Below are positions 2,609-32,638 of a stretch of DNA of 64,000 nucleotides, piece by piece. The first letter of the stretch is position 1, and the number at the start of each line of letters is the position of its first letter. A program made the translations under genes and the position numbers. Below the pieces are notes generated by a model that ran no database searches, had not been told where the DNA came from, and saw only the letters and a program-made list of their open reading frames with translations. Source of the stretch: a virus; IMG/VR virus record IMGVR_UViG_3300042197_003344, positions 1 to 64,000 of that record. The stretch is one strand, 5' to 3'.

Positions 2609-3595
2609 ATGATGCACGACTTTCAAAAAATACCGTTTCAAAATATCGTTAAGTTTGGACAGAGAACAATGTTACAAAGACCCTTGTTCTCTGTCAGTTG
2701 GATATTGGGTCGATTCTGTAATTATAATTGTTCCTATTGTTGGCCCTATGCTAGAACTGATCGTATAGACCATTTGTCTTTGGAAATATATAAAAATACA
2801 GTAAACGAAATCAAACGTCAGGCTCGACAAAATGGTTTTACAGAATTTCATTGGAGTTTTAGCGGCGGTGAACCTACAGCATTTAAGCAACTTCCCGATT
2901 TGATTAAGCACATCGATGACGGAATAAACACACCTTATCAAAGTATTCATATGACCACTAATCTTTCGCCTGGATCTAAATGGTGGAAAAATTGGGCAAA
3001 TATCACAGCGAATTTACAAAGACGAAGTATTACAGCAAGTTATCACGCAGAGTTTGCCAAGGAACAGGAATTTGGAGACAAATGTCTTCAACTTATATAT
3101 GATAATGTATACGTTACAATTAATCAGGTGATGGTACCAGATAAATTTTTTGAATTATATGAACGCTGTGAAAGATTGAATAATCGAGGAATTAATGTAA
3201 CTTTAAAACCGCAAAGCGATCCAACAGCTAGTCGGGTGATAGAAGGTTATACAACAGAAATGATTAATCTAATGCAGACAGGTTTCCCTCAGCAAATATC
3301 AGGAGAAGAATTATATCAAATATCTCTTTATGATAAAAATAATACAGAATATTATTTTGATCAAGCAGAAAGATTCAATGCTTATGGCTTCAATAAATTT
3401 AAAGGTTGGAATTGTAATTCTGGCTATCAAAGTATTATAATAAGAGGAGAAGAAATAAAAAGAGGATATAGTTGTCAAGAAGATGCGATAGGCAAAATTA
3501 CAGATGGCTTTAAAATTTTTAACTCTCCGAAAAAATGTGTAACAGATAGTTGCGTAAGTTCTGCTGATTCAAAGATTCCTAAAACGAATGTATAA
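2609..3595 (+). CDS. Radical SAM enzyme (island member 1)
   Basis: 328 aa. The CxxxCxxC cluster motif CNYNCSYCW sits near residue 37, followed by a SAM-binding GGE motif in FSGGEPTAF. The C-terminal region has further cysteines (WNCNSGYQS, YSCQEDA, CVTDSCVSS) that could bind an auxiliary Fe-S cluster. This fits a SPASM/twitch-like peptide- or sugar-modifying radical SAM protein, substrate unknown. First gene of a coupled operon: its end overlaps the next start by 8 bases. The enzyme class is certain from motifs; the reaction is not. Confidence 0.9.
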   Translation: MMHDFQKIPFQNIVKFGQRTMLQRPLFSVSWILGRFCNYNCSYCWPYARTDRIDHLSLEIYKNTVNEIKRQARQNGFTEFHWSFSGGEPTAFKQLPDLIKHIDDGINTPYQSIHMTTNLSPGSKWWKNWANITANLQRRSITASYHAEFAKEQEFGDKCLQLIYDNVYVTINQVMVPDKFFELYERCERLNNRGINVTLKPQSDPTASRVIEGYTTEMINLMQTGFPQQISGEELYQISLYDKNNTEYYFDQAERFNAYGFNKFKGWNCNSGYQSIIIRGEEIKRGYSCQEDAIGKITDGFKIFNSPKKCVTDSCVSSADSKIPKTNV

Positions 3596-4610
3596 TATCA
3601 ATACTATTACCGATCTTCATATAGAGCTAACTGATCGATGTCAGGCTAGTTGTCCTATGTGTGCTAGAAATGTAAACGGCGGTAAAGAAAGGGAATTCGT
3701 GGGAAAAAATGAAATAACTTTAGAAGTTTTTAAACAGTGGTTTCCTTCTGAGTTTATTAAACAGCTTAATCATTTTTATGCTTGTGGTAATTATGGAGAT
3801 CCTATAATCGCTAGAGACTGCTTAGAAATATATGAATATATAAGGTCTCTTAACAATAACTGTCATTTAGGAATTCATACCAATGGAAGTGCTCGTGAAA
3901 GTAAATGGTGGAGTGATTTAGCCAAGGTGTTAGGAAATAATCATACCTGTACTTTTGGAATAGACGGATTTGAACACAGTCACAATTTATATAGAAGAGG
4001 TACAAATTGGCAAAAGATCATCGATAATGCATCTGCATTTATAAAAGCAGGCGGTCATGCTGAAATTGATTGTCTAGTATTCAAACACAATCAACATGAA
4101 ATAAATCAGTTTCAAGATAAAATGTTAACGTTAGGGTTTAAAAAAATAAATTTTAAATATACAAGAAGATTTTATGATATGAGTGAATTTCCTGTAGAAG
4201 ACAAAGAAGGAAATATAGAATATTACTTAGAGCCAGCCATACAGGAATCTGTAATCGAATTTTTACCTCTTAAAAAAATCAGCGAAGACATTTCGATATG
4301 GGAAGAAAAGGTATCAAAGTCAATCATCAAACCTAAATGTATTGAAAAAAATGAAATTTTTGTAGACAGTAAAGGCAATGTATTTCCCTGTTGCTGGATA
4401 GGATCGGACTGGGCGGAACAACCGATACCTGAAACTATGCCTATACAAAAATTAAGAAATTTAGTCGTGAACGATACCAAGAAAAAATTTGAAAAAATAG
4501 GTATAGATAATCTCAACAAAATTAAAATTATGGAATTATCTTGGAATAACTTAAATGATACATTACAAGAAATCAAACCATGGACTTGTGTAAAAAACTG
4601 TTATGCTTAA
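3588..4610 (+). CDS. Radical SAM/SPASM-type enzyme (island member 2)
   Basis: 340 aa. CxxxCxxC is present as CQASCPMCARN near residue 18. A C-terminal SPASM-like arrangement (CIEKNEIFVDSKGNVFPCCW, then CVKNCYA at the end) provides ligands for auxiliary Fe-S clusters. SPASM proteins typically act on peptides or other bulky substrates. Overlaps the preceding and following genes by 8 bases each, so it is co-translated with a methyltransferase-like protein. Substrate unknown. Confidence 0.9.
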   Translation: MYNINTITDLHIELTDRCQASCPMCARNVNGGKEREFVGKNEITLEVFKQWFPSEFIKQLNHFYACGNYGDPIIARDCLEIYEYIRSLNNNCHLGIHTNGSARESKWWSDLAKVLGNNHTCTFGIDGFEHSHNLYRRGTNWQKIIDNASAFIKAGGHAEIDCLVFKHNQHEINQFQDKMLTLGFKKINFKYTRRFYDMSEFPVEDKEGNIEYYLEPAIQESVIEFLPLKKISEDISIWEEKVSKSIIKPKCIEKNEIFVDSKGNVFPCCWIGSDWAEQPIPETMPIQKLRNLVVNDTKKKFEKIGIDNLNKIKIMELSWNNLNDTLQEIKPWTCVKNCYA

Positions 4611-5238
4611 TACTTCAACAAACTTAAATTTTTTAGTTGATTTGGAACATCTCCATTATTGGATGATGGCAATTAGGGACAGTCATAATCCGATACGCAC
4701 GTTAGATGCTTTCTGGAAAGGTCAAATTTCTAGTAAGCTATGGCTGATACAAAATCTTAGACCCGTTGTATTAGAGAATTTTAGTTCTAAGAAGGTTAAT
4801 ATTGATGTACATGGCGGCTGGGTAGGTGTATTGTCCAGTATGATTTTTCAAAGTGACCTACCAGTTTTAAATATTCGTAGTATTGATATAGATCCAGGTT
4901 GCAAGGATATAGCCACAAAGATGAACAAAATAGAAGAAATTCAAGGTAGATTTAAATCAATAACTGCTGATATGTGTTCGATTGATCCCGAAGGTGACAT
5001 TATTATTAATACAAGTTGTGAACACATTACACAACGGCAATACGATGATTGGATTAAAAAGATTCCTGATGATAAAATTTTAGTTCTTCAGAGTAACAAT
5101 TATGATATTTCTGAACACATTCGTACAGCAAAAAGTTTGTCTGAATTTCGATCACAATGCGATATAAATGTACTATGGGAAGGCGAATTTGAAACACAGC
5201 TATATACTCGTTATATGTTAATAGGAAACAGAAAATGA
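4603..5238 (+). CDS. Class I SAM methyltransferase-like protein
   Basis: 211 aa. The pattern of a Rossmann methyltransferase is visible: VHGGWVGVLSSM at the glycine loop, IRSIDIDPGCKDIA as the acidic end of strand 2, ITADMCSID for the next strand, and IIINTSCEHI where a catalytic-loop strand is expected. It probably methylates a small molecule or a product of the neighbouring radical SAM enzymes. Coupled by overlaps on both sides (8 and 4 bases). Confidence 0.65.
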   Translation: MLNTSTNLNFLVDLEHLHYWMMAIRDSHNPIRTLDAFWKGQISSKLWLIQNLRPVVLENFSSKKVNIDVHGGWVGVLSSMIFQSDLPVLNIRSIDIDPGCKDIATKMNKIEEIQGRFKSITADMCSIDPEGDIIINTSCEHITQRQYDDWIKKIPDDKILVLQSNNYDISEHIRTAKSLSEFRSQCDINVLWEGEFETQLYTRYMLIGNRK

Positions 5239-6071
5239 TTGAAACGGGTATTGTAAAATGGTACAATGATTCTAAAAGATATGGATTTATTATCGCTGAT
5301 CGCGATGGTTCAAATATTTTTGTAGAAAAAAAACAAATTTTAAGTGTACCCCAGACTATATTCGAATTACAAAAGGTAGAATTTATTAGAGAAAAAACTG
5401 AAAGAGGGTACTTGGCCATCGAAGTAAGAATCTTAGAATTACAAGAAAGAAAGTTATTAGAATTTCCTCGAATTAGTATTTTTGATAACTTATTGGATCA
5501 AGAATTTTGTAATAATTTGATACTTAAACATCAAACAGTTGGAATGAATCCAAACAGCGGTTATCAGAGTCGTATAGAATCGTATGCACAGGTAACGGAA
5601 GAAGTAGAAAATAGAGGCATAAGCCTAGGAGTAGACCCGTATGATTACGATATACTAGCTACGGCTATAGTAAAAGCTGCAAGAATTCCGTATAGTCATA
5701 TAGAAGCCATTGACATTTATAACTATAACGAAGGCCAATTTTTAGCTTACCATCATGATTATCCGTATGATTCAAAACAGATCAATTATTATAAGTATGG
5801 CGGGGATAGAGTAGGAACTGGTATATTTTACCTCAATGAAGATTTTGACGGAGGGGAAACATACTTTCCTCATCATGATATTACTGCCTATCCTAAAGCG
5901 GGATCATTTTTATATTTCGAACAAGGGTATGACGAAGCAACCAATTGGTCAACAATACACGAAAGCAAAATGATAACCAGAGGTACTAAATGGATCGCTA
6001 GTTGCTTTTTTAGTGACAGACCTAGAGTAGGGTGGAGTCCGAGAGACAATTTATATAAGGAAAAACAATGA
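5235..6071 (+). CDS. Cold-shock domain fused to 2OG-Fe(II) prolyl-4-hydroxylase-type oxygenase
   Basis: 278 aa. Residues ~1-65 form a cold-shock nucleic-acid-binding domain (GIVKWYNDSKRYGFIIADRD, the RNP1-type motif). Residues ~80-270 form a prolyl-4-hydroxylase-like double-stranded beta helix with AYHHDYP (HxD), GIFYLNEDFDGGETYF and a distal WSTIHES...RGTKW (His and the 2OG-binding basic residue). The fusion suggests hydroxylation of a target reached through RNA or single-stranded DNA, or of a translation-machinery protein. Coupled to its neighbours by 4-base overlaps. Domain calls are strong; the target is inference. Confidence 0.85.
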   Translation: MIETGIVKWYNDSKRYGFIIADRDGSNIFVEKKQILSVPQTIFELQKVEFIREKTERGYLAIEVRILELQERKLLEFPRISIFDNLLDQEFCNNLILKHQTVGMNPNSGYQSRIESYAQVTEEVENRGISLGVDPYDYDILATAIVKAARIPYSHIEAIDIYNYNEGQFLAYHHDYPYDSKQINYYKYGGDRVGTGIFYLNEDFDGGETYFPHHDITAYPKAGSFLYFEQGYDEATNWSTIHESKMITRGTKWIASCFFSDRPRVGWSPRDNLYKEKQ

Positions 6072-6988
6072 AAATTTTATTAACAGGGAGCTCGGGATTC
6101 ATCGGTTCTCATATGACACCGATTTTAGAAAAAAATCATGAACTGCACCACTTGAAAAGTAATCTTCTAGATTACAAATCTGTCCAGGAAGAAGTATTAT
6201 CTATTTCTCCTGAAATAATAGTACATCTTGCTGCCCGTACCGAAGTTGAAAGAAGTTTTTATGAACAAACAACATTTAGCGAAATCAATTATGTTGGAAC
6301 AGTAAATCTTATAGAAGCAGCTGCCCGCATAAAAAATTTTAAAAATTTTGTATTTGCCAGTACAATGGAAGTTTACGGTTGGCAACCTATAAGTGATATA
6401 GTAAAAGGAGGATTAGTTCCTAGAGATTTTATTGCCTTTAATGAAAATACATCACCGAATCCCAACGCACCTTATGCCGTGGCCAAGTACGCCTGTGAAA
6501 AATATCTAGAGTATGCATATCGCTGTTACGGTTTACCATTTACTGCAATAAGACAGACTAATAGTTATGGAAGAAAAGATAACGATTTTTTTGTGACAGA
6601 ACAGATCATTAGTCAAATGATACGCAGTCCAGACGAGATTAATTTAGGATATGCAGAACCTTATAGAAATTTTATTTTTATCAGTGATCTTCTAGATGCT
6701 TGGATAGAAGTAATAGAAAACTACGACAGGGTACAAGGAAAAATTTTTACCATAGGACCAAACGCTCCTATTAAAATTAAAGATTATGCACAGAAAATTG
6801 CTAATAAATTAAATTGGAACGGTCAAATAAATTGGGATACTAAACCTAAAAGACCAGGAGAAATTTATTGGCTTAATAGCTGTCATGATCTAATTACATC
6901 TACTATAGGATGGAAACCAAAAATTGATTTGGATTTTGGTTTAGATCAAACGATTGATATCTGGCTTCATAATTATGAAAATAGATAA
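6068..6988 (+). CDS. NAD-dependent epimerase/dehydratase (extended SDR)
   Basis: 306 aa. N-terminal dinucleotide-binding motif TGSSGFIGSH, LAARTEVERS, and the active-site YAVAKYACEKY (YxxxK, around residue 140) place it in the nucleotide-sugar epimerase/4,6-dehydratase family. Likely acts on an NDP-sugar, giving the island a sugar-building step. Starts inside the stop of the preceding oxygenase. Confidence 0.9.
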   Translation: MKILLTGSSGFIGSHMTPILEKNHELHHLKSNLLDYKSVQEEVLSISPEIIVHLAARTEVERSFYEQTTFSEINYVGTVNLIEAAARIKNFKNFVFASTMEVYGWQPISDIVKGGLVPRDFIAFNENTSPNPNAPYAVAKYACEKYLEYAYRCYGLPFTAIRQTNSYGRKDNDFFVTEQIISQMIRSPDEINLGYAEPYRNFIFISDLLDAWIEVIENYDRVQGKIFTIGPNAPIKIKDYAQKIANKLNWNGQINWDTKPKRPGEIYWLNSCHDLITSTIGWKPKIDLDFGLDQTIDIWLHNYENR

Positions 6989-7679
6989 TTGGATTCCTTT
7001 CTTTAAATTTGATGAAAACGGGTTCGGTGGAGCTATGTCTCAACAGACCTACGAACCGTTAATTAGTCCCGACGGCAAAACATTCTGTGCTAATTATGAT
7101 TGGAATAACAAATATCAACGATACGAACAATCTGTACGTTTAGACTACACTAAAGAAGTAGTTGACTATTTCTTTTCTAAGGAAATCGAATACGCTCAAA
7201 GATTTGCAGGTCGATCCTGGGCTCCTGAAATTTTAGAAATTGATCGCAGTAGACATAGAATTTATTATAGATGGAATAATCCATCTTGTAATGAAATAAT
7301 TTATCGAGATAAAAATTACCCTGTCGAATGGAAAAAGCAAATCAACAAAATAATAACTGAAATTTATCAGCTAGGTGTCTACAAATTAACAATGTATCCT
7401 CACTGTCATTATATAGATAATGAAGGACAGATGCATACTATAGATATGTACGGCTGTGTTGAAGTGAATGATCCTTTTATAGAAAAAAAAATTATGGACG
7501 GAATAATTCACGGCACCGCTAGATTTAGACTAGACGAAACTGGACCGATAATTAATGACAGATATAATTTAGAAAAAATGTTTTTTAATAGTTTACGTAC
7601 TCATGTAAAATGGGGAGAACATACTTTAGATTTTATCTATCAAAACATACTCGGAGATAGCAATGAAATATATAGGTAA
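6975..7679 (+). CDS. Degenerate kinase-fold-like protein
   Basis: The start is set at ATG 6975 (MKIDNWIPFFKF), giving 234 aa. The order of motifs recalls a small-molecule kinase: WAPEILEIDRSRHRIYYRW resembles the strand/hinge region, and LGVYKLTMYPHCHYI followed by HTIDMYGC resembles a weakened catalytic loop plus a DFG-like strand. A related protein lies at 17662-18363. Canonical catalytic residues are not all evident, so activity is uncertain. Overlaps both neighbours. Confidence 0.5.
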   Translation: MKIDNWIPFFKFDENGFGGAMSQQTYEPLISPDGKTFCANYDWNNKYQRYEQSVRLDYTKEVVDYFFSKEIEYAQRFAGRSWAPEILEIDRSRHRIYYRWNNPSCNEIIYRDKNYPVEWKKQINKIITEIYQLGVYKLTMYPHCHYIDNEGQMHTIDMYGCVEVNDPFIEKKIMDGIIHGTARFRLDETGPIINDRYNLEKMFFNSLRTHVKWGEHTLDFIYQNILGDSNEIYR

Positions 7680-8292
7680 TTGTGCAGACAGAATAAATTG
7701 GAACGAAGTAATTAGATTGTGTCAACAAAGTATTACTGGAGATAAAAATACAGTTACTTCTGTAATTGATAGATCCGAAGCAACCTTTCAAAATCGAGAA
7801 CCGATGCCTGCTCAGGTTTTGATAGAAGCCGGTGAGCAGTTAAAGAATGAACAATTATTAAAAGATTATAGAGAAGTAATAGGTGCTTGGAGAGATGCAG
7901 GATGCGATCTGGAAAAAATTTATTGGTTTGATTATTATCCCGGTGATCATTATCCGATTGAAGTTTCAGACACTTTTGCAAACATAGTCGGAATAAAACC
8001 ATTAAGAATTTTTGTAAGTGAAGTATTTCCCGGAATAACAGTTCCGTATCATTGGGACGTGGAAGATAAAGAACAGGAATGGTTAAAAGATCATGGAATG
8101 CTTTATAGATATACCTGTTGTATGGATATCCCTAGAACTGGTAGTGTATTAATAGTAGACAATCATTGCCTGTATGATTTTAAACAAGGGGATATTTTCG
8201 AATGGGATAGTTATAGAAATTATCATTCTGCAGCTAATGGCGGCGAACACATACAATACTATTTTCATATGTTAGGATATAAAGTGAAATGA
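7663..8292 (+). CDS. Asp/Asn-hydroxylase-like Fe(II)/2OG oxygenase
   Basis: 209 aa. The beta-helix iron motif is visible as PYHWDVED (HxD) and the distal His in RNYHSAANGG, with VLIVDNHCLYDFKQGDIFEW between. This spacing is that of the aspartyl/asparaginyl hydroxylase type. Its N-terminus (YIGNCADRINW) is shared with the next gene and with 20348-20842, so these are paralogues. Probably hydroxylates a peptide or amino-acid-like group. Confidence 0.8.
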   Translation: MKYIGNCADRINWNEVIRLCQQSITGDKNTVTSVIDRSEATFQNREPMPAQVLIEAGEQLKNEQLLKDYREVIGAWRDAGCDLEKIYWFDYYPGDHYPIEVSDTFANIVGIKPLRIFVSEVFPGITVPYHWDVEDKEQEWLKDHGMLYRYTCCMDIPRTGSVLIVDNHCLYDFKQGDIFEWDSYRNYHSAANGGEHIQYYFHMLGYKVK

Positions 8293-8834
8293 TAGAAAAA
8301 GTTGGAAATTGTTCAACAATTATAAACTGGAATAAGATAATAGCAGATATCGAAAATCAAAAACCTTCCTATGTAGGACCTAGTCATAAAGAAGGAGATC
8401 CGATTCCGGGACTCGATGAAGTAACTGATATGTGGAAACGTGCAGGACTTAAAACTTCTGCCCAAGGAGGAACAGTAGAATGGGATATGTTCTTACCTTA
8501 TAAAAATTTTGATATAAAAATAGTTGAACAATTTTGTGAATTTGTCGGCCTAAAAAATTATACAAGTTGCTGGATAAGCAGAATAAATCCCGGACGATGC
8601 TCTCCCTGGCACTGGGATGTTCACGACGACGAAGTAAATTTATCTAAAAGAACAGATATAATTAGATATCATTGTCATATGGGACAACCTGCACACGGTC
8701 ATGTTTTGATAGTAGACCAGATTTGTTTGTACAATCGACCACAAGGTGAGGTCTATAAATGGCCTTCAAGAACGACTTGGCATTGCGGTCTTAATAGTGG
8801 TCTAACTCCTAAATATCTTTTTAATATATGGTAG
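8289..8834 (+). CDS. Asp/Asn-hydroxylase-like oxygenase, paralogue of preceding gene
   Basis: 181 aa. HxD motif in SPWHWDVHDDE and distal His in TTWHCGLN, with HVLIVDQICLYNRPQGEVYKW between. N-terminus VGNCSTIINW matches the upstream gene. Starts 4 bases inside the preceding gene. Tandem paralogues imply two successive or site-specific hydroxylations. Confidence 0.8.
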   Translation: MIEKVGNCSTIINWNKIIADIENQKPSYVGPSHKEGDPIPGLDEVTDMWKRAGLKTSAQGGTVEWDMFLPYKNFDIKIVEQFCEFVGLKNYTSCWISRINPGRCSPWHWDVHDDEVNLSKRTDIIRYHCHMGQPAHGHVLIVDQICLYNRPQGEVYKWPSRTTWHCGLNSGLTPKYLFNIW

Positions 8835-8838
8835 AAAA

Positions 8839-9039
8839 ATGAATAATCAAAAATTAAATGATCAAGATGTTCCGATTACAGAAATTTTTTATATGCAGAA
8901 ATTTATGCAAATTCAAAGACAGAATGTTGTATTATCAAATAAGTTACGAATGTTATACGAAGATCAAAATATAAAAAATATAATTGAAACTAATATAGAT
9001 AATAGTTTTTTCGATATACTTAAAGAAACACCGGCATGA
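8839..9039 (+). CDS. Small hypothetical protein, 66 aa
   Basis: Short, polar, helix-prone protein (QKFMQIQRQNVVLSNKLRML) in the island operon. It starts 5 bases after the preceding gene and ends overlapping the next radical SAM start by 4 bases. Not recognised. Its position directly before a twitch-type radical SAM gene makes it a possible peptide substrate or adaptor, but it lacks an obvious Gly- or Cys-rich core. Confidence 0.65.
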   Translation: MNNQKLNDQDVPITEIFYMQKFMQIQRQNVVLSNKLRMLYEDQNIKNIIETNIDNSFFDILKETPA

Positions 9040-10451
9040 ATGAAATTTATTGGATGCAATCTGAAAACAGTAAAATAGGACGTTGGCAGCGTAAAATTGA
9101 AGAAGACACAGGGTCTAAAACATTCTGTGTTTTGCCCTGGATACATTTTGCTACAAGACCCAACGGAGATATGCGTCTTTGTTGTAATTCTAATAGTAGT
9201 GGTGCAGGAATAGATCACGAAATTGGTCTGGTAAAAAATGAAACGGGAAGACCGGCTAACTTCGGCAAAGAAACTCCTATGAGTGCTTGGAACAATGAAT
9301 ACATGCAAAATGTAAGAACCAGCATGCTTCAAGGTAACATACCACAAAGTTGTAAAAAATGTTTTGACGAAGAAAGCAAGGGTGTTGCTAGTAAACGTAT
9401 ATGGGAAACAGCTACCTGGGTTGAAGAAGGAATTGATCTTGCTCAACTCATTGATCAAACGTCTGAGCAAGGTACAGTTCCAGAACAATTGATTTATTTA
9501 GATCTTAGATTGGGACATACTTGCAATCTAAAATGTGTGATGTGTAGTCCTCACGACAGTAGCCAATGGGTTTCTGAACACAAAAAAATCTACCCGTTAT
9601 TTAAAAACGAAGAAATTAAAAAACAAATGTCTTGGGATAGAAAAGAATTTAATAATTTTTGGCATGAAAATCCTACATTTTGGAAAGAAATATACGCACA
9701 AATTCCTAATCTGAAACAGGTATATTTTGCAGGCGGCGAGCCTTTAATGATTCGAGAACATAAATTGTTCTTAGAAGAAATAATTCGTCAAGGATACGCG
9801 GATAAAATATTAATAAGATACAATACAAATGGCTTATTGTTAGATGAATCTATAATTGATCTATGGACAAAGTTTAAAAAAGTCAAGGTTGGATTTAGCA
9901 TCGATGCTGTCGGAGATCGCAACTACTATATTCGTTATCCTAGTGATTGGAACACCATTGAAAAAAATCTACATAGGCTAGATGATACGCCAGACAACAT
10001 ACAGGTCAGTATAGCCACTGCTATACAGATCTTGAATATAAAACATCTACCAGATTTTGCTCGTTGGAAGATACAGCAAAACTTTAAGAAAATAAATTTT
10101 GAAAATATTACTGGGGGTATACAGGCTGGAGGTGGTATTGTTAATATGCATCTATTGTATATACCTACTTTTTTAAGTATTCAATGTTTGCCTTCGGAGG
10201 ATAAAGCAGAAGTCAGACGTAAATTTGCGGAATTCGCTACATGGCTACACGAAAACTACAGACAAGATAAAGATTACTGGAAAGATAATCCTTACGGTTG
10301 GAAAAGATGGCAGGCTGTATTAGAGTTTATGGATTCTCAAGATCTCTCACATTTATTACCAGCTTTTAAAGAATACATTAATACATTAGATAATTATAGA
10401 AAAACTGATTTTAAAACAATCTTACCAGAATTGCAACATCTAATACAATAA
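9036..10451 (+). CDS. Twitch-domain radical SAM protein
   Basis: 471 aa. An N-terminal cysteine-rich region (CVLPWIHFATRPNGDMRLCC, then SCKKCFDEES) precedes the radical SAM core with CNLKCVMCSPHDSSQW near residue 163 and GGEPLM. This is the twitch-domain radical SAM layout, known in marine phages without an assigned reaction. Four paralogues are in this island (12258, 13514, 19200, 27765). Its end is followed by a convergent minus-strand operon. Confidence 0.9.
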   Translation: MNEIYWMQSENSKIGRWQRKIEEDTGSKTFCVLPWIHFATRPNGDMRLCCNSNSSGAGIDHEIGLVKNETGRPANFGKETPMSAWNNEYMQNVRTSMLQGNIPQSCKKCFDEESKGVASKRIWETATWVEEGIDLAQLIDQTSEQGTVPEQLIYLDLRLGHTCNLKCVMCSPHDSSQWVSEHKKIYPLFKNEEIKKQMSWDRKEFNNFWHENPTFWKEIYAQIPNLKQVYFAGGEPLMIREHKLFLEEIIRQGYADKILIRYNTNGLLLDESIIDLWTKFKKVKVGFSIDAVGDRNYYIRYPSDWNTIEKNLHRLDDTPDNIQVSIATAIQILNIKHLPDFARWKIQQNFKKINFENITGGIQAGGGIVNMHLLYIPTFLSIQCLPSEDKAEVRRKFAEFATWLHENYRQDKDYWKDNPYGWKRWQAVLEFMDSQDLSHLLPAFKEYINTLDNYRKTDFKTILPELQHLIQ

Positions 10452-10460: not shown

Positions 10461-11354
10461 CTATAAAATCTGTTTAGTCAAAGGTATATCTGCTGCACAG
10501 GTACACCAATCTCTCGTACATATAACAGGCTCTCGAGGAGCAATGAATGTTCCTTGATATATATTACCGAGACTTCCGCCAACTCTGCAAGTAGCGCGAT
10601 GCACTTCGCCGTCCCAATTAATCATTAAACTTTCTATTCCTGCATTACATTTCCAACCCTTAAATTGATTTAAATTTTTTTTAATAATGTCGTTAGCATG
10701 AATTATGTATTCGTTATCTACTCTACAATTAGGTTTGGCAGTAGCGTCTTGAGATAAAATCCATTCTAAATCTTTACCGTCATATTTTAAGTCATCGAAA
10801 ATATTATGATCGCCGTCTGTCCATCTTATTCTTCTTACTGCATATTTTATTCCTATTTCGTTAAATTTTTTGATTACTTTTTTAACCTGAGGTATAAAAG
10901 AATGATGCGCCATTACATTTACAAAAAATTCTCTTTCAGTAGCATCGTAATATTTTAATATTGTATCTACTATTCTAGTATAGTCAAATTCGAAATGTAA
11001 ACTAAAAACCAAATGATTAAAAAACATTTCATTTTCTAAATACCATCTATAACCTCTAGTACCGTTGGTAGTAACATTTACCCAGAACACATTTTTTCGT
11101 TTAAAATAATCTAATAAATCTTCTATATCGGGATGTACGCAAGGTTCTCCTCCAGTGAGACTTATTCTTAAAGGTGTTTTTAGTTTACAGAGTTGATCTA
11201 CAGCACTTTCTAATATGTTAATATCTGTATGATTACTAACATTATCGTGAATGCTTGTGGGACAATAACTACAATCATAGTTACAACGTTTGCCCAAATT
11301 CCATTCTATTTTAATTTGATCTTGATGCGGATAAACCGGATTAATTTGTTTCAT
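10461..11354 (-). CDS. Radical SAM enzyme
   Basis: 297 aa. CxxxCxxC as CNYDCSYCPTSIHD near residue 23, SLTGGEPCVHP as the SAM-binding motif, and further Cys residues at the C-terminus (CRVGGS, CTRDWCTCAAD) fitting an auxiliary cluster. Similar in size and layout to the first island gene. Last gene of the minus-strand operon 15380-10461; its start overlaps the preceding gene by 14 bases. Confidence 0.9.
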   Translation of the reverse strand: MKQINPVYPHQDQIKIEWNLGKRCNYDCSYCPTSIHDNVSNHTDINILESAVDQLCKLKTPLRISLTGGEPCVHPDIEDLLDYFKRKNVFWVNVTTNGTRGYRWYLENEMFFNHLVFSLHFEFDYTRIVDTILKYYDATEREFFVNVMAHHSFIPQVKKVIKKFNEIGIKYAVRRIRWTDGDHNIFDDLKYDGKDLEWILSQDATAKPNCRVDNEYIIHANDIIKKNLNQFKGWKCNAGIESLMINWDGEVHRATCRVGGSLGNIYQGTFIAPREPVICTRDWCTCAADIPLTKQIL

Positions 11355-25434: not shown

Positions 25435-26607
25435 ATGAAAAAAGGTAAAATTATAAATTTTGAATTACTATGGGATACACAAGATGATCCATGGCCGATT
25501 AACCTTAAATTAATATCAGAGGACATGAGAAAAGCCGCTGAGGAAGGATATAATTTAATTGTCGGAATTATGTTAGTTGAAGGAATACGACCAATAGACG
25601 AACCCGGTTTTCTTACATTCATGAATTCTTTAGAATCTTTGGGAAAAAAGATAGGAATCGAAGAAATAATATTGGTTACAGGGTCTTCTGAAAAATTTAA
25701 AAATATCAATGTTCCTTACAAGTTGTATCACGTAAATTGTAATTTAATTATTGCTTACAATAGCTATAAAAACTTGTTATCAGATCTTCCGTTCTATAAT
25801 TCGATTAATAAACAATTTTTATTTCTTACAGGCATAGCTACTCGTCCAAACAGAGTAGGATTATTAAGCAAATTTTATGATAATAAATTGTTAGAAAATT
25901 CAGTTTGGTCATTCTTTTATCCTGCTACAGATGGTGACAGACAGTGGTGTAGAAATTATCTTTCTCATTATGATGATTCGGAATATGAAAAATTTATTAC
26001 AGATTGTCAGAGGTCGGTTGATGATAGATATACTGAATACAATAAATTTCAAAGAGATGATTTTCAAAATCAAACTGATATAAATTGGATAGACATACGG
26101 CACACAGAATTTTGTAAAAATGAAACTTTTATCGATCCTGAAATATTTAGAGATACAGCTTTTAGCATAATAAGCGAAAGCACAAATTATTGGAATGAAA
26201 ATTTTGATTTTGTCACAGAAAAAACTTGGAGAACAATAATTCATAGACATCCTTTTATATTCGCAGGTCATCCAGATCAATTTATGTATTTGAAAAATTT
26301 AGGACTTAAAACTTTCGAAGACTATATGAAAATAAAGGATTATTGTTACATCAAAGATGAAAATACAAGATTAGATGCTATTGTAGAAAATACCAAAGAT
26401 TTTTTAATTAACCATAAAAAATATTCGGAAAACATACAGAAAGATGTTCAACATAACTTTTCTTTATTTTTAAGTCTAGCAAATGAAGAATTAAAAAATC
26501 TCAAAACACTAATGTCAAGTTACGGTGTTGATGTGCAAGATGTTGAACATTATTTTGATTGCACAGGATTTGATCATTTAATAAGGATTCCGAATGAGCA
26601 AAGGTAA
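25435..26607 (+). CDS. Island protein family A, copy 1 (possible glycosyltransferase)
   Basis: 390 aa, paralogous along its length to the next gene. Shared blocks are GKIINFELLW, EEGYNLIVGIMLVEG, ATRPNRVGLLSKFYD, WCRNYLSHYDD, and FVTEKTWRTIIHRHPFIFAGHP followed by LKTFEDYMKI. The FVTEKTWR block resembles the nucleotide-sugar-binding end of some GT-B glycosyltransferases (family 10-like), which is only a suggestion. Function not proven. Confidence 0.7.
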   Translation: MKKGKIINFELLWDTQDDPWPINLKLISEDMRKAAEEGYNLIVGIMLVEGIRPIDEPGFLTFMNSLESLGKKIGIEEIILVTGSSEKFKNINVPYKLYHVNCNLIIAYNSYKNLLSDLPFYNSINKQFLFLTGIATRPNRVGLLSKFYDNKLLENSVWSFFYPATDGDRQWCRNYLSHYDDSEYEKFITDCQRSVDDRYTEYNKFQRDDFQNQTDINWIDIRHTEFCKNETFIDPEIFRDTAFSIISESTNYWNENFDFVTEKTWRTIIHRHPFIFAGHPDQFMYLKNLGLKTFEDYMKIKDYCYIKDENTRLDAIVENTKDFLINHKKYSENIQKDVQHNFSLFLSLANEELKNLKTLMSSYGVDVQDVEHYFDCTGFDHLIRIPNEQR

Positions 26608-27775
26608 AGTAATTAATCTTGAATGGTTACGAGACTGCAATTACTATGAAGAAAAAGAATTTAAAAATTTAAAATTGCAGTTGATAGAAAAAGAAATTCA
26701 ACAGGCATGTGGAAATGGTTGTAATATAATTGTTGGAATTTACCTTATGGATGGTTTTTTGCCTTATAGCAAAGAACAGTTTTCCTTAGAAATGACAGAA
26801 ATAAAAAATATTGCAGAAAAATATGATATAAAAAAAATATTAATTGTTTCGGGACATGGAGAAACGATAGGAGATATTGGATTACCTTATTGTTATTTTG
26901 ATTATACTCTTAGAATGACTTACAACGGTTATAGGAATATCTTGGACAGTATACCAAAATATAAAAAAGAAAAAAATAAAAAATTTTTATTGTTAGGAGG
27001 AAATTCTGCCAGACCTAATAGAATTGGGTTGTATAGTAAATTTTACGAAGAAAGAATGTTTGATAGATGTGTATGGACATTTTTTCCTCCTGATACAATT
27101 AATGATAAAAAATATTGTAGAAATTATCTTTCTCATTGGAATGATAATCAATACCAAGAATTTTTAAAATTTTGTCAAAGGTCTTTAGACGACACGTATG
27201 TCAAAGCGTCTTGTTATTTAGGTGATTATGCCAATCAATCAGAAAATAAAATTTTTTATGATTTAGCCAATGAAGAGTGGACTAGAAATATAGTCTATTT
27301 AGATCCGAACGTGTTTGCTGAAACAAGTTTTAGTGTGATTACAGAAGGTCCAAATTATTGGAGAGATAATCATAATTTTGTCACAGAAAAAACATGGAGA
27401 ACAATACTTCATCAACACCCTTTTATTCTAGTAGGTCATCCGGAACAACTCATATATCTAGAAAAATTAGGATTTAAAACTTTTTTAAATTATATGAAAA
27501 TTTCCGACTATGCCAATATATATTCAGACGCCGAAAAATTTCAAGCAGTTGTAGAAAATACAAAACATTTTCTAGAAATTCAGGATAAGTTTTCTGATCA
27601 AATAGAACAAGATGTTATGCACAATTATGATCTTCTTTTAGAAAAAATTAAAGATCAAGAAATATTTTTTGATTTTTTAAAAACTGAATATTATATTTCA
27701 AAAGAAGATATAGATTATTATTTTGATCGAACAGGCTACGATCAACTCATAAGGAATCCTGCTAATGGAATCTAA
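26594..27775 (+). CDS. Island protein family A, copy 2
   Basis: 393 aa, tandem paralogue of the preceding gene with the same order of conserved blocks (GKVINLEWLRD, SARPNRIGLYSKFYEE, YCRNYLSHWNDN, FVTEKTWRTILHQHPFILVGHP, FKTFLNYMKI). Overlaps the preceding gene by 14 bases and the next radical SAM gene by 11. The duplication suggests two related transfers or a heterodimer. Confidence 0.7.
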   Translation: MSKGKVINLEWLRDCNYYEEKEFKNLKLQLIEKEIQQACGNGCNIIVGIYLMDGFLPYSKEQFSLEMTEIKNIAEKYDIKKILIVSGHGETIGDIGLPYCYFDYTLRMTYNGYRNILDSIPKYKKEKNKKFLLLGGNSARPNRIGLYSKFYEERMFDRCVWTFFPPDTINDKKYCRNYLSHWNDNQYQEFLKFCQRSLDDTYVKASCYLGDYANQSENKIFYDLANEEWTRNIVYLDPNVFAETSFSVITEGPNYWRDNHNFVTEKTWRTILHQHPFILVGHPEQLIYLEKLGFKTFLNYMKISDYANIYSDAEKFQAVVENTKHFLEIQDKFSDQIEQDVMHNYDLLLEKIKDQEIFFDFLKTEYYISKEDIDYYFDRTGYDQLIRNPANGI

Positions 27776-28691
27776 ATGTGCAGCATTTTGGCATCACACT
27801 AATATTCGAAGCGACGATAGGATTTTTCCTTGTTGTAGATTTAAAAGTCCTATTGCTAAATTTGATGGAAATGTTTCACAGGTGCTATTCTTAAAAGAAT
27901 ACAACGAGCTAAGAAAACAAAGTGTCGATAATATACCTATCAAAGGTTGCGAAAAGTGTTATTACGAAGAAGCTATAGGGAAGAAAAGTCTTAGACAAGA
28001 ATTTAATGAAACTTATGATTGTGAAACGATTTCGATAGAATATTTAGAAATTGGTTTTGATAACATCTGCAATTTAACTTGTGATGGCTGCTATGAGGAA
28101 TTTAGTTCTTCTTGGAGTAAATTAAAATATCCCAATGCAGAAAAATCAGTACATATTAAATCCACTAAAGAAATTATTGAAATTCCTAATTCTTTAAAAA
28201 AAGTTTTATTTTTAGGTGGTGAGCCTTTAATGACTAATCGACATCAAAAATTTTTAAATGTTGTTAAAGATAAGTCTAATGTAGAAATCGTATACAATAC
28301 TAATGGTACTTTTTTATTAGATAAAGATACAATAATACTTCTTGAACAATTTAAAAAAGTTTCATTCATCGTCAGTTTAGATGGTTTCAAAGATCTAAAT
28401 GAGCAGGTTCGTAGAGGAAGTAAATGGAATCAAATAGATGAGTTTATTAAACAAATTAAAACAACAAAATTTGATCTTTCCGTAAATACAGTTTTACACA
28501 TTAATAATTGGTTTGGTTTAAAAGAATTAGAAAAATACATAAAAGAAATAAATGTTCTTTGGAGTGTTAATTTTGTAACATATCCTAAACATTTAGATAT
28601 TATAAATGTAAAAGAAAAACAAATTCTTATCGATCTATTGAAATCGATAAAAACTGTAAATCTTGAATATATTATAAAACATGTTAGTTAA
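27765..28691 (+). CDS. Twitch-domain radical SAM protein, shortened
   Basis: 308 aa. N-terminal CAAFWHHTNIRSDDRIFPCC and GCEKCYYEEAIG, core CNLTCDGCYEEFSSSW, and LFLGGEPLMTNRH. Shorter than its paralogues (386-471 aa): the C-terminal third is missing although the frame ends with a clean stop. It may be naturally minimal or truncated. Confidence 0.85.
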   Translation: MESKCAAFWHHTNIRSDDRIFPCCRFKSPIAKFDGNVSQVLFLKEYNELRKQSVDNIPIKGCEKCYYEEAIGKKSLRQEFNETYDCETISIEYLEIGFDNICNLTCDGCYEEFSSSWSKLKYPNAEKSVHIKSTKEIIEIPNSLKKVLFLGGEPLMTNRHQKFLNVVKDKSNVEIVYNTNGTFLLDKDTIILLEQFKKVSFIVSLDGFKDLNEQVRRGSKWNQIDEFIKQIKTTKFDLSVNTVLHINNWFGLKELEKYIKEINVLWSVNFVTYPKHLDIINVKEKQILIDLLKSIKTVNLEYIIKHVS

Positions 28692-28718
28692 AATAGAACA
28701 ATATAAGGATTTTATAAA

Positions 28719-29312: not shown

Positions 29313-30354
29313 TCATTGGGATCAGTTAGAGGAGATTGTTGTTGGAGTAGCCACTAACGCCCGGGTGCCTACTGTAGATTCGAGTACCATGAATATGTGC
29401 TATAGTAATTATTCTATAGATCAAATAAAAAAACTAGAGGGTCGATATCCTCAATGGTTGATAGACGAAGCAAATGAAGATATGCAAGTGTTAGCAGATA
29501 CTCTGTCTTCTATAGGAATAAAAGTTCATCGACCGAGAATAATCGATCATAGCAAAGAATTTAGTACTCCAGAATGGAAAACAACAGGATGGTATACTTG
29601 GTGCCCAAGAGATTTGTTGTTACCTCTCGATAATTTGATGATAGAAACACCGAGTCCTTGCAGAGCAAGATATTTCGAAACTCGTGCCTATCACGACATC
29701 ATGTTAGAAGCAGTGAATGATGGAGTAGAATGGATATCTGCTCCGAAACCTATATTGACAGATGATAATTATCAATTTGTAGACATAAAAGAAAAACCAA
29801 GTCTTCGAAATTTAGAACCGATCTTCGATGCTCCCAATTGTGTAAGATTGGGTAAAGACATTCTTTTTCAAATTAGCAATACCGGAAATCATCTTGGTAT
29901 GAAATGGTTAAAGAACGTATTAGAAAAAAGAGGATACAGAGTTCACGCAGCAGAACATATATACAGTTTCGCTCATATGGACAGTACCATAATTCCTTTA
30001 AGGCCTGGATTAGTACTGTTAAATAGTACTAGAGTTACTCCAGAAAACTGTCCTAAATTATTTGATAAATGGGATAAAATTTATTTTCAAGATGTGGCTC
30101 AAACTCCGGTTCCGACAAGTGGTCCAGGATCGGTAAGTCCTTGTAGTCCTTATATAGGAATGAATATACTAAGCATAAATCCTAATACTGTGGTAGTAGG
30201 AAAAGATCAACTATCTCTAATTAAAGTCCTAGAATCAAAAGGATTTACAGTAATTCCGATGCCAATGAGACACGCTCGTACACTTAGTGGAGGGTTTCAT
30301 TGTGCTACGTTAGATCTTAGAAGAACAGGTCCTTTAGAGGATTATTTTCAATGA
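29293..30354 (+). CDS. Amidinotransferase family enzyme (glycine amidinotransferase-like)
   Basis: 353 aa. The catalytic Cys motif LSGGFHCATLDLRR lies at the C-terminus. TYSFAHMDSTIIPLRPGL-type strands carry the catalytic His/Asp: YSFAHMDSTI. The N-terminal EEIVVGVATNARVP matches the start of arginine:glycine amidinotransferases. It would move an amidino group from arginine to an amine, making a guanidino compound. Such genes occur in some large aquatic phages. A strong family call; the acceptor is unknown. Confidence 0.9.
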   Translation: MLISSNNHWDQLEEIVVGVATNARVPTVDSSTMNMCYSNYSIDQIKKLEGRYPQWLIDEANEDMQVLADTLSSIGIKVHRPRIIDHSKEFSTPEWKTTGWYTWCPRDLLLPLDNLMIETPSPCRARYFETRAYHDIMLEAVNDGVEWISAPKPILTDDNYQFVDIKEKPSLRNLEPIFDAPNCVRLGKDILFQISNTGNHLGMKWLKNVLEKRGYRVHAAEHIYSFAHMDSTIIPLRPGLVLLNSTRVTPENCPKLFDKWDKIYFQDVAQTPVPTSGPGSVSPCSPYIGMNILSINPNTVVVGKDQLSLIKVLESKGFTVIPMPMRHARTLSGGFHCATLDLRRTGPLEDYFQ

Positions 30355-30833
30355 AGGGATATCACGGACAAATAGAAGATTTTTGGTCTGACTATTTGCA
30401 AAGCTATGTTTACCAACAACAGATACCTTATTCGGGAATGAGAGAATCATGGCACGAAAATTTCAATAACGGTCATCTTTTACAAAGCTTTGATGATCAG
30501 TTACCTCCAATATGGAAAAAATTTCAATCTTCTTTAAACGTATATAACGGCACTGTGGGTTGGATTAACATTCGACCTAATCAAATCATTGCACCTCATT
30601 TTGATCATTTTTATACACTGAAACAAAAACTAGGGACTACAGTCGAAAAATGTATAAGATATTTAATATTTTTAGAAGATTGGAAATTTGGCCAATACGT
30701 AGAGTTTGAAAATCTTTCTATTAGAAAATGGAAAAAGGGAGATGTTTGGTACTTTGATCATACCGAAGAGCATTGGGCTGTTAATGCAAGTAATTTTGAT
30801 TTTCATACTTGTCAGGTTAATACAATAAGATGA
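30351..30833 (+). CDS. Asp/Asn-hydroxylase-like oxygenase
   Basis: 160 aa. IRPNQIIAPHFDHFYTL (HxD) and HTEEHWAVNASNF (distal His), with WKFGQYVEFENLSIRKWKKGDVWYF between. Overlaps the genes on both sides by 4 bases, so it is co-translated with the amidinotransferase and the cobalamin-type radical SAM enzyme. Hydroxylation of the guanidino product is a possible but unproven pairing. Confidence 0.75.
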   Translation: MKGYHGQIEDFWSDYLQSYVYQQQIPYSGMRESWHENFNNGHLLQSFDDQLPPIWKKFQSSLNVYNGTVGWINIRPNQIIAPHFDHFYTLKQKLGTTVEKCIRYLIFLEDWKFGQYVEFENLSIRKWKKGDVWYFDHTEEHWAVNASNFDFHTCQVNTIR

Positions 30834-32638
30834 AATCTATATATTTTTTTCAGTGTAACTATTCTGCTAAATTCGGCGAAAGAACACAGTATTGGTTACC
30901 ATATTCGGTTGGTTGTCTTTGGGCTTATGCTCAGCAGTTCGATGATATAAAATTAAATTGGGAAGTAAAAGGAAAAATTTATAGGAGAGATCCTATTGAT
31001 ACCGTATTAAAAAAAATAGAAGACCCTACCGTATGTGTTTTTAGTTGCTACTGTTGGAATGAACAATATAATTTAACGGCTGCAAAAAAAATTAAGGAAT
31101 TATGGCCTGAGACACATATAGTATTTGGAGGACCTCAATCAGGAAGTAATCATTTAAAATATGATTTTATTGATTCTATTGTTTTCGGAGAAGGTGAAGA
31201 AAGTTTTTTAGAAATTCTTAGAACTATAGATGCAGGCAACAAACTTCAAGAGTTATATACGAAAAAAAGATTAGAGAATTTAGAAATTCCTAGTCCCTAC
31301 CTTATTGGTTTTTTTGACGATATCATTGCCGAATCTCCAGAAGATTTTTTTCAAGGAGTACTAGAAACTAATAGAGGATGTCCGTATTCTTGTACTTTTT
31401 GCGATTGGGGTAGTACTACCTACGGCAAGGTAAAAAGATTTAATTTAGAACGGGTAAAAGATGAAATAGAATGGGTAACAAAGAATCCTATTACTACTCT
31501 GTTTATTACAGATGCAAATTTTGGGGCGTTCAAAGAAAGAGATTTAGAAATAGCTACTATATTAGAGAAATATAGTAAAAATTCATGTTTAGAATATGTA
31601 AATGTTACCTATGCAAAAAATAGTAATGAACACATATTTAAAGTTGCTAAGGCCCTGGGTCCTTTGGGTCGAGGAGTTACTCTTAGTGTACAGAGCATGA
31701 ATCCAAAGACTCTTGAGGTTATAAAAAGAGATAATATGGCCAGTAACGATCTGAAAAATATGTATGCGTTGAGTCATCAATATGGAGTTACAACATACAC
31801 TGAAGTAATACTAGGGTTACCTGAAGAAACACTAGAAAGTTTTATAGATGGTATATCCGAATTATTAGAGCTAGGTCAGCATACTCAATGTGAAATGTAT
31901 CTTGCAAATGTAATGGAGAATACTGAATTAAATCAGGTTCAAAAATTTAAGTACGGTATAAAAACAATTAGATGCGAAAATTATCAACCATTCTCTTTTA
32001 ATGATTTAAGCAATATTCCGGAATATACAGATTTAGTATGTGAAACTAACACGATGAGTAAAAATGATCTAACCGATGCTTATATGTTTCATTGGACCGT
32101 ACAAAATTTTCATTATCTAGGTTGGAGTCAAATAATTTCTAAATATTGTAGAAATGTGTTAGATATACCTTATAAAAAATTCTACAGCAAACTTTTAAAT
32201 TCGTTGAAACAAGATCAAGGAATCTTAGGAAATGAGTATAGAGAAGTAGAAAAAAATATTAGATATTTATTTGATACAGGGACCTTAATGGTTGATATTC
32301 CTGTTCATCATTATAACGGAAAAAGTCATTCATTGATCTATGATAATTTAGAAACAGTTTTAATTTTTATAATTGAGTTTTCTAAATCTCTCGGTTATAT
32401 AGATCCTACAATAATCGAAATTCAAAAAAGATTTGTTATGAATCCTAAATATTTGCCTCTTGACTATATCGAATCAAATTATAATTTAGAAAATTGGCAA
32501 GAAAAGAAAACAGCTTACAAGATAGAATGCCAGTTCAAAGATTTTGTACCTACTTATACAAATATTTGGGTTTTAAGAAGATCGGGAAAATTAAAAAATA
32601 AAATTATAGAACTCAATGCGGAAGTATTTATAAAATAA
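30830..32638 (+). CDS. Cobalamin-binding-domain radical SAM enzyme
   Basis: 602 aa. Residues ~1-150 look like a B12-binding Rossmann domain (CVFSCYCWNEQYNLTAAKKIKE; HIVFGGPQSG; FGEGEESFLEIL). The core has the CxxxCxxC motif RGCPYSCTFCDWGS near residue 185. This is the B12-dependent radical SAM architecture used for C- or P-methylation and other rearrangements. The ~200-residue C-terminal region is helical. Last gene of the island, followed directly by a terminator hairpin. Confidence 0.9.
   Translation: MKSIYFFQCNYSAKFGERTQYWLPYSVGCLWAYAQQFDDIKLNWEVKGKIYRRDPIDTVLKKIEDPTVCVFSCYCWNEQYNLTAAKKIKELWPETHIVFGGPQSGSNHLKYDFIDSIVFGEGEESFLEILRTIDAGNKLQELYTKKRLENLEIPSPYLIGFFDDIIAESPEDFFQGVLETNRGCPYSCTFCDWGSTTYGKVKRFNLERVKDEIEWVTKNPITTLFITDANFGAFKERDLEIATILEKYSKNSCLEYVNVTYAKNSNEHIFKVAKALGPLGRGVTLSVQSMNPKTLEVIKRDNMASNDLKNMYALSHQYGVTTYTEVILGLPEETLESFIDGISELLELGQHTQCEMYLANVMENTELNQVQKFKYGIKTIRCENYQPFSFNDLSNIPEYTDLVCETNTMSKNDLTDAYMFHWTVQNFHYLGWSQIISKYCRNVLDIPYKKFYSKLLNSLKQDQGILGNEYREVEKNIRYLFDTGTLMVDIPVHHYNGKSHSLIYDNLETVLIFIIEFSKSLGYIDPTIIEIQKRFVMNPKYLPLDYIESNYNLENWQEKKTAYKIECQFKDFVPTYTNIWVLRRSGKLKNKIIELNAEVFIK

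What the first reader, a model, noticed from the sequence alone, without database searches (positions are those of the whole stretch)
2609..32638. 30 kb island with 11 radical-SAM enzymes and 9 Fe(II)/2OG-type hydroxylases
Seen: eleven CxxxCxxC radical SAM proteins (2609, 3588, 9036, 10461, 12258, 13514, 19200, 21961, 23744, 27765, 30830). Nine HxD...H oxygenase-like proteins (5235, 7663, 8289, 15424, 18385, 20348, 22946, 28719, 30351). Also SDRs, a methyltransferase, PP-loop ATPase, amidinotransferase, aminotransferase-like protein and two kinase-like proteins, nearly all with overlapping stops and starts. Inference: one or a few co-regulated pathways making an unusual molecule or modification (peptide-derived, sugar or guanidino compound, or a hypermodified nucleotide or virion glycan). 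The density is extreme for a phage. The island ends next to a fibre gene, and some heads carry late boxes, so the product may modify the virion or host surface.
Basis: partly seen in the sequence, partly recalled or inferred. Interest (0 to 1): 0.85.

Follow-up and report, generated by a model that had tools for sequence, protein, structure and literature searches.

The report
Conserved phage surface-chemistry gene island
A group of uncultured large T4-like viruses of bacteria carries, beside a tail-fibre gene, a 30,000-letter block of about 35 enzyme genes that probably builds or decorates an unusual sugar-like coating; its most constant gene was found in no sequenced phage isolate and no bacterial genome searched, so its product is unknown and worth finding.

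Summary
All 11 radical-SAM (rSAM) proteins pass Pfam's cut-off. All nine proposed 2OG oxygenases carry HxD; the distal His is clear in eight, and the residues are conserved across homologs. The island is 99.5% coding, 31.5% G+C against 40.6% elsewhere.

The main rival, unrelated cargo genes, is rejected. The same genes recur in similar order in many IMG/VR contigs (45 non-redundant) from T4-like phages up to 364 kb. There is a core (OG5, Kin2, an unknown 187-aa protein, OG4, rS5, PP-loop, OG3, Kin1) plus swappable accessory genes. Where an Mtd_N tail-fibre gene is in view it flanks the island in 12 of 15 loci. Genes compared with a relative are under purifying selection.

OG5, present in every locus, was found in no phage isolate or bacterial genome searched.

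Best mechanism (inferred): biosynthesis and tailoring of a sugar- or cyclitol-containing surface conjugate, including guanidinylation. The amidinotransferase's best solved match is StrB1 (streptomycin pathway); some bacterial homologs sit in polysaccharide loci; two families look like glycosyltransferases by fold.

Not supported: late promoters; active kinases. "Extreme for a phage" has precedents (Campylobacter phages CP220/CPt10; a marine T4-like genome with 12 rSAM genes). Verdict: new variant of a known kind.

The parts
2609..3595 (+). rSAM rS1
   Evidence: Pfam PF04055 39.5 bits; Cys motif conserved in 8 sequences
3588..4610 (+). rSAM rS2
   Evidence: PF04055 33.3 bits
4603..5238 (+). putative methyltransferase (unconfirmed; no Pfam or PHROG hit)
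   Evidence: present in 8 of 45 loci
5235..6071 (+). cold-shock domain fused to 2OG-Fe(II) oxygenase (OG1)
   Evidence: PF00313 44.3 bits and PF13640 39.5 bits
6068..6988 (+). NAD-dependent nucleotide-sugar epimerase/dehydratase
   Evidence: PF01370 1.7e-37; phrog_540 7e-54
6978..7679 (+). Kin1: kinase-like protein, catalysis doubtful
   Evidence: Kin1+Kin2 profile matches TTK kinase weakly, 0.0067; 33 of 45 loci
7663..8292 (+). 2OG oxygenase-like OG2
   Evidence: H130, D132, H188 conserved in 33 sequences
8289..8834 (+). 2OG oxygenase-like OG3
   Evidence: H108, D110, H165 conserved in 40 sequences
8839..9039 (+). 66-aa helical-looking ORF; in some relatives fused to the C-terminus of OG1
9036..10451 (+). 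rSAM rS3 with N-terminal twitch domain
   Evidence: NF033640 407.8 bits against cut-off 170
10461..11354 (-). rSAM rS4
   Evidence: PF04055 46.7 bits; 33 of 45 loci
11341..12267 (-). unknown 308-aa protein
   Evidence: 3 of 45 loci
12258..13517 (-). rSAM rS5, core, SPASM-like N-terminus
   Evidence: PF04055 34 bits and SPASM 35.7 bits; 39 of 45 loci, median 70% identity
13514..14710 (-). rSAM rS6, SPASM-like N-terminus (start placed at 14710 to avoid a long overlap)
   Evidence: PF04055 47 bits
14697..15380 (-). QueC-like PP-loop ATPase, core
   Evidence: SGGADS and CxxCxxC conserved; phrog_1550 1.1e-8
15424..16092 (+). 2OG oxygenase OG4, core
   Evidence: profile matches solved beta-hydroxylase 1e-15; 39 of 45 loci
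16085..16546 (+). small SDR-like 1
   Evidence: PF00106 4.8e-5, below cut-off
16542..17138 (+). small SDR-like 2, core
   Evidence: 37.6% identical to SDR1; 33 of 45 loci
17112..17675 (-). unknown 187-aa core protein (GNAT-like only by eye)
   Evidence: 39 of 45 loci; no library match
17662..18363 (-). Kin2: pseudokinase-like core protein
   Evidence: 45 of 45 loci; weak kinase profile match
18385..19200 (+). OG5: 2OG oxygenase-like, most conserved core protein
   Evidence: H178, D180, H237, R250 conserved in 53 sequences; 45 of 45 loci by anchor; absent from isolates and genomes
19200..20360 (+). rSAM rS7
   Evidence: PF04055 38.7 bits
20348..20842 (+). 2OG oxygenase-like OG6
   Evidence: PF05118 just below cut-off; 29 of 45 loci
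20837..21964 (-). two-domain protein: GT-A-like N-half, methyltransferase-like C-half
   Evidence: AlphaFold2 pLDDT 90.5; Foldseek LH3 1.5e-4, METTL6 9.2e-4
21961..22995 (-). rSAM rS8
   Evidence: PF04055 29.9 bits
22946..23704 (-). Asp/Arg hydroxylase-like 2OG OG7
   Evidence: PF05118 37.5 bits
23744..24565 (+). rSAM rS9
   Evidence: PF04055 36.4 bits
24562..25422 (+). PLP aminotransferase-like protein
   Evidence: PF00155 0.0028; SLSK lysine invariant
25435..26607 (+). GT-B-like protein 1
   Evidence: AlphaFold2 pLDDT 89.2; PglA TM 0.40, probability 0.91 but E 0.067
26594..27775 (+). GT-B-like protein 2 (paralogue)
   Evidence: 41% identical to the previous protein
27765..28691 (+). rSAM rS10
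   Evidence: PF04055 46.9 bits
28719..29312 (+). Asp/Arg hydroxylase-like 2OG OG8
   Evidence: PF05118 43.8 bits
29293..30354 (+). amidinotransferase, StrB1-like
   Evidence: best solved match inosamine-phosphate amidinotransferase 6.8e-96
30351..30833 (+). Asp/Arg hydroxylase-like 2OG OG9
   Evidence: PF05118 26.1 bits
30830..32638 (+). rSAM rS11 with B12-binding-like N-domain
   Evidence: PF04055 53.7 bits; B12-binding 26.2 bits, below its cut-off
32660..34312 (-). Mtd_N tail fibre flanking the island (boundary marker)
   Evidence: PF18454 27.5 bits; next to the island in 12 of 15 loci where visible

Best explanation
The island is a multi-enzyme biosynthetic locus of a T4-like phage lineage that makes and tailors a sugar- or cyclitol-containing conjugate, probably attached to the infected cell's surface or to the virion's adhesion apparatus, so altering receptor recognition or superinfection. 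Likely steps, all inferred: the epimerase and SDR-like proteins prepare an activated sugar; PLP and QueC-like PP-loop enzymes add nitrogen; the StrB1-like enzyme moves an amidino group from arginine to an amine, giving a guanidino group; rSAM, B12-rSAM and 2OG enzymes methylate, rearrange or hydroxylate unactivated carbons; GT-like proteins attach the unit. Shown here: the gene families, shared gene content and order, purifying selection, and the adjacent fibre. Inferred: substrates, product, place of attachment and benefit.
For: Recurrent core and gene order. Purifying selection, pN/pS 0.06-0.47. Amidinotransferase closest in the PDB to StrB1: 325 bits against 184-215 for AGAT, SxtG and HsvA. 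Bacterial homologs in Pelagibacteraceae and Parcubacteria contigs sit among polysaccharide deacetylase, glycosyltransferase and methyltransferase genes; the pooled neighbour set also hits NeuB and polysaccharide-synthesis models. Fold matches to GT-A glycosyltransferases plus a methyltransferase half for 20837, and weaker GT-B matches for 25435. Accessory genes in variant islands include UDP-glucose dehydrogenase, epimerase, FkbM methyltransferase and sulfotransferase. Synechococcus phage S-SCSM2R has a related amidinotransferase among annotated glycosyltransferases. Mtd_N fibre beside the island in 12 of 15 loci where visible.
Against: No glycosyltransferase was found by sequence; both GT assignments rest on weak Foldseek matches with low TM-scores. 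The most constant genes (OG5, Kin2, 187-aa protein) say nothing about sugars. The amidinotransferase was found in 12 of 20 contigs searched, some only distant copies, so guanidinylation is an optional step. Trp halogenase and AMP-binding genes in some variants also fit a diffusible natural product. No transporter, flippase or lipid-carrier gene was identified. StrB1 is only the closest solved structure.
Confidence: 0.5

Rival explanations
1. Post-translational modification of the phage's own fibre or adhesin: rSAM and 2OG enzymes hydroxylate or cross-link side chains and GTs glycosylate them, as in collagen hydroxylysine chemistry.
For: Fibre adjacency; best Foldseek hit of 20837 is lysyl hydroxylase/glycosyltransferase LH3, with mimivirus R699 and COLGALT1 also listed; several Asp/Arg beta-hydroxylase-like proteins; SPASM/twitch domains are common in peptide-modifying rSAMs (general knowledge).
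Against: Nucleotide-sugar enzymes and a StrB1-like amidinotransferase suggest carbohydrate building blocks; fibre adjacency may simply mark a variable genome region.
Confidence: 0.2
2. A diffusible natural product (RiPP-like or amino-acid derived) made during infection.
For: Density of rSAM, B12-rSAM and 2OG enzymes; Trp halogenase and AMP-binding genes in variant islands.
Against: No conserved precursor-like ORF family of 45 aa or more in 45 loci; the 66-aa ORF is fused to an enzyme in some relatives; no exporter seen.
Confidence: 0.15
3. Hypermodification of phage DNA or tRNA.
For: QueC-like PP-loop, rSAM and 2OG chemistry, 29 tRNAs nearby.
Against: No nucleic-acid-modifying family matched within the island; the PP-loop is below the Pfam QueC cut-off. 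The rest of the genome is incomplete and untested.
Confidence: 0.08
4. Random accumulation of unrelated metabolic cargo genes.
For: Accessory genes vary, with inversions and duplications; the right-hand part shows lower dS than most of the left.
Against: Core co-occurrence: Kin2 45, 187-aa protein 39, rS5 39, OG4 39, PP-loop 36 of 45 loci; conserved order, flanks and purifying selection.
Confidence: 0.05

Closest known systems
Radical-SAM plus amidinotransferase exchange module of Campylobacter phages CP220/CPt10 (PMC2853527)
   Same: Block of five rSAM genes with an amidinotransferase in a large T4-related phage, near baseplate and tail-fibre genes; differs between otherwise similar phages.
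   Different: About 10 kb; proteins only 22-31% identical where they match; no OG5/Kin2 core and no annotated 2OG enzymes.
Host recognition cluster of pelagimyophages (PMC7029224)
   Same: Variable island beside tail fibres in T4-like phages, with glycosyltransferases and radical-SAM cassettes; our phage shares curli-type and cyclase-like genes with HTVC008M and Melnitz.
   Different: Described as non-syntenic; here a conserved core set recurs in many phages. The defining flanks VrlC/gp14 were not tested.
Synechococcus phage S-SCSM2R glycan-type cluster
   Same: Amidinotransferase, rSAM, 2OG and aminotransferase-annotated genes side by side.
   Different: One rSAM in the cluster and annotated GTs; amidinotransferase 35% identical; no OG5 homolog.
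T4-like marine genome TARA_ERS488813_N000010 with 12 rSAM genes (PMC5332604)
   Same: Similar rSAM count in a T4-like phage.
   Different: The paper reads them as Fe-S metabolism; no island described in the passage read; sequence not compared here.
Streptomycin-type inosamine-phosphate amidinotransferase StrB1 (1bwd)
   Same: Full-length homology of the amidinotransferase, with conserved His, Asp and Cys.
   Different: Single enzyme, not the cluster; acceptor untested.

Membership tests
Radical SAM superfamily (11 proteins) | CxxxCxxC within the PF04055 domain above cut-off | tested here: met
N-terminal twitch rSAM (NF033640), protein 9036 | score above 170 bits | tested here: met
   407.8 bits; the other SPASM-like rSAMs were not scanned
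Fe(II)/2OG oxygenases (9 proteins) | HxD and distal His conserved | tested here: met
   HxD in all nine, distal His clear in eight
Fe(II)/2OG oxygenases (9 proteins) | curated family score above cut-off | tested here: inconclusive
   four pass, two just below, three no Pfam hit
Amidinotransferase, StrB1/AGAT type | full-length homology with His/Asp/Cys active site | tested here: met
   6.8e-96 to 1bwd; H228, D230, C337 invariant; Pfam ADI model below cut-off
Amidinotransferase, StrB1/AGAT type | acceptor is an aminocyclitol | not testable with these tools
   needs an assay
QueC | PF06508 above cut-off | tested here: not met
   17.3 against 22 bits, although SGGADS and four Cys are conserved
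Protein kinase (Kin1, Kin2) | catalytic HRD/DFG residues | tested here: not met
   catalytic Asp and Asn positions not kept by eye in alignment A3; fold similarity only weak
Glycosyltransferase (20837, 25435) | significant family or fold match | tested here: inconclusive
   fold matches 1.5e-4 with low TM-score, and above 0.01; no Pfam match
CP220-type rSAM/amidinotransferase module | orthologous proteins | tested here: not met
   22-31% identity to scattered members
Pelagimyophage host recognition cluster | variable island beside tail fibres in a T4-like phage | tested here: met
   Mtd_N fibre; Gp23 in five related contigs
Pelagimyophage host recognition cluster | position between VrlC and gp14 | not tested
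   structural module not mapped
RiPP cluster | conserved precursor peptide | tested here: inconclusive
   none of 45 aa or more found; shorter ORFs were not clustered
Phage DNA hypermodification cluster | DNA-acting oxygenase or nucleotide-modifying partner enzyme in the island | tested here: not met
   no such family matched; rest of the genome not examined

The most novel reading that the evidence does not exclude
A phage-borne pathway, with core enzymes not found in any cellular genome searched, that makes a chemically new guanidinylated, hydroxylated and methylated sugar conjugate and places it on the virion's receptor-binding fibre or the host surface, with accessory genes acting as interchangeable 'serotype' cassettes.
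Probability: 0.25. Interest if true: 0.85.

Novelty: new variant of a known kind. Interest (0 to 1): 0.6.

Why it matters
It shows that rSAM/2OG-rich regions in large T4-like phages can be a conserved pathway with a core and swappable parts rather than loose auxiliary genes. The core was missed because OG5 has no match in phage isolates, the bacterial genome set or Pfam. It offers many unusual enzymes with co-conserved partners, and a concrete chemical prediction (a guanidino group on an amine) testable in vitro without the host.

Tried and rejected
Random cargo: rejected for the core by co-occurrence. Late-promoter control: TATAAATA not enriched. Active kinases: not supported. RiPP precursor: no conserved family found; the 66-aa ORF is fused to OG1 in some relatives. 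PDB profile searches of OG5, the 187-aa protein, the PLP family and the GT-B family gave no significant match. Pfam on pooled core families gave nothing useful. One search with 26594 found only a near-identical contig. OG5 scan of genome contigs found none. Literature searches found no description of this core, but subscription journals are not in the library.
Full report
Observation. The window is part of a 77,298-base IMG/VR record. Between 2609 and 32638 there are 35 genes; 25 of 28 same-strand neighbours overlap, 99.5% of bases are coding, and G+C is 31.5% against 40.6% in the rest of the window. All eleven rSAM proteins carry CxxxCxxC and exceed the Pfam cut-off; protein 9036 also exceeds NCBIfam NF033640 (407.8 against 170 bits). 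Of the nine 2OG candidates, four pass Pfam, two are just below and three have no hit. All have HxD, eight have a clear distal His, and these residues are conserved in homologs. The profile of 15424 matches solved beta-hydroxylases at 1e-15.

Not chance and not loose cargo. A scan with the amidinotransferase found 14 viral loci; several are largely syntenic with the right half of the island. Fetched stretches of a 281-kb contig (G005) and a 107-kb contig (G007) carry both halves. A scan with OG5 matched 145 stretches; 80 loci were kept, 45 after 95% clustering. Within 10 kb of OG5, Kin2 is present in 45 of 45, the 187-aa protein in 39, rS5 in 39, OG4 in 39, the PP-loop in 36, and rS4, SDR2 and Kin1 in 33 each; the amidinotransferase is in 21 and the PLP enzyme in 23. 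Some loci are short, so these are lower bounds. OG5 was the search anchor, so its own count is by construction. Genes are shuffled, duplicated and inverted between loci.

Flanks and lineage. An Mtd_N-type fibre gene appears in 15 of the 45 loci and is directly next to, or one gene from, an island gene in 12 (counted by hand), as in the window. ThyX on the left is 89% identical in G005 and 64-82% in three others; right-flank genes are about 70-75% identical in G005. Five of eight related contigs have a T4-type Gp23 capsid gene. In contigs of 364 and 357 kb, every rSAM match listed lies in one region (240-264 kb and 170-189 kb; the listing was truncated). OG5 is single-copy in all 17 contigs tested. 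It is absent from 50,697 phage records and no relative was found in the 84,980-species genome set (that scan finds close relatives only).

Selection. Against G005 and its near relative L004, pN/pS ranges from 0.06 (amidinotransferase) to 0.47 (OG4, 20837); OG5 is 0.10 and ThyX 0.15. dS is 0.65-1.0 for 23744 to 32638 except 1.28 at 25435, and mostly above 1.3 or saturated to the left, which suggests mosaic exchange. Saturated values make the ratios approximate.

Chemistry. The amidinotransferase's best solved match is StrB1, 325 bits against 184-215 for HsvA, SxtG and human AGAT. Bacterial homologs at about 40% identity lie, in a Pelagibacteraceae and a Parcubacteria contig, beside polysaccharide deacetylase, methyltransferase or glycosyltransferase genes; a pooled Pfam scan of 49 neighbours from selected loci shows Polysacc_deac_1 in four and hits to NeuB and Polysacc_synt_2. 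That scan does not assign hits to loci, and one of the loci is probably a phage contig. A larger group of bacterial homologs instead sits beside a protein of about 1,400 aa that was not identified. Protein 20837 models well (pLDDT 90.5); its halves resemble GT-A glycosyltransferases (LH3, mimivirus R699, LARGE1, a PBCV-1 capsid GT) and methyltransferases (METTL6), with low overall TM-scores. Protein 25435 (pLDDT 89.2) resembles GT-B proteins weakly in the PDB (PglA) and more strongly uncharacterised phage proteins in BFVD. The PP-loop keeps SGGADS and a QueC-like cysteine set but misses the Pfam QueC cut-off. Kin1 and Kin2 show weak kinase similarity without the catalytic residues. Accessory genes in variant islands include UDP-glucose dehydrogenase, epimerase, Trp halogenase, TauD, AMP-binding, FkbM, sulfotransferase and class-III aminotransferase.

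Mechanism. From this I infer a pathway that builds and tailors a sugar- or cyclitol-containing conjugate, with an optional guanidino group, destined for the host surface or the virion fibre. Gene families, co-conservation and location are shown; substrates, product and attachment are not. Fibre-protein modification is the strongest rival, because the best fold match of 20837 is a hydroxylysine glycosyltransferase and because the fibre gene is adjacent.

Comparison. Timms et al. (PMC2853527) described in CP220 and CPt10 a swapped module with five rSAM genes and an amidinotransferase, and 11-12 rSAM genes per genome. Pelagimyophages have a variable host recognition cluster with tail fibres, glycosyltransferases and rSAM cassettes (PMC7029224). 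A marine T4-like genome has 12 rSAM genes (PMC5332604). Synechococcus phage S-SCSM2R has an amidinotransferase among glycosyltransferases. The window's island belongs to this broad kind but differs in size and in having a recurrent core without isolate relatives. Hence 'new variant of a known kind'.

Limits. Related contigs are mostly fragments, the host is unknown, and homologs were collected by pattern scans anchored on island proteins. Genes inside the related loci were called by a simple longest-ORF rule. No library of predicted cellular structures was on hand.

Noticed in passing
window 2435-2563, minus strand: Sub-threshold manA RNA-like match (18 bits, gathering 55.2, E 0.017) with a tRNA-like look, between the island and the ThyX side.
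   Followed up: partly
window 50679-60714: Curli-type assembly gene (57052) and adenylate/guanylate cyclase-annotated gene (50679) with relatives in Pelagibacter phage HTVC008M and Methylophilales phage Melnitz.
   Followed up: partly
window 36284-41984: 29 tRNA genes on the minus strand covering many anticodons.
   Followed up: no
window 5235-6071; L048, L055, L057 and others: Cold-shock domain fused to a 2OG oxygenase, in some relatives also fused to the 66-aa helical domain.
   Followed up: partly
L148:11453-13060, L150:11438-12985: Flavin-dependent tryptophan-halogenase-like genes inside variant islands; S-SCSM2R also has a PrnA-annotated gene nearby.
   Followed up: no
L024 (G005 138-158 kb): A second rSAM-rich patch in the 281-kb relative, away from the island.
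   Followed up: no
L002 (record 62-77 kb): By eye, phage-borne DnaK, small heat-shock protein, IMP dehydrogenase-like and formate-dehydrogenase-like genes; DnaK about 64-66% identical to other phage-collection records.
   Followed up: partly
L168: Contig binned as Candidatus Puniceispirillum encodes an amidinotransferase 77% identical to the island's; probably a misbinned phage contig.
   Followed up: no
L177, L182, L188, L195 and others: Many bacterial amidinotransferase homologs are followed by an unidentified protein of about 1,400-1,700 aa.
   Followed up: no
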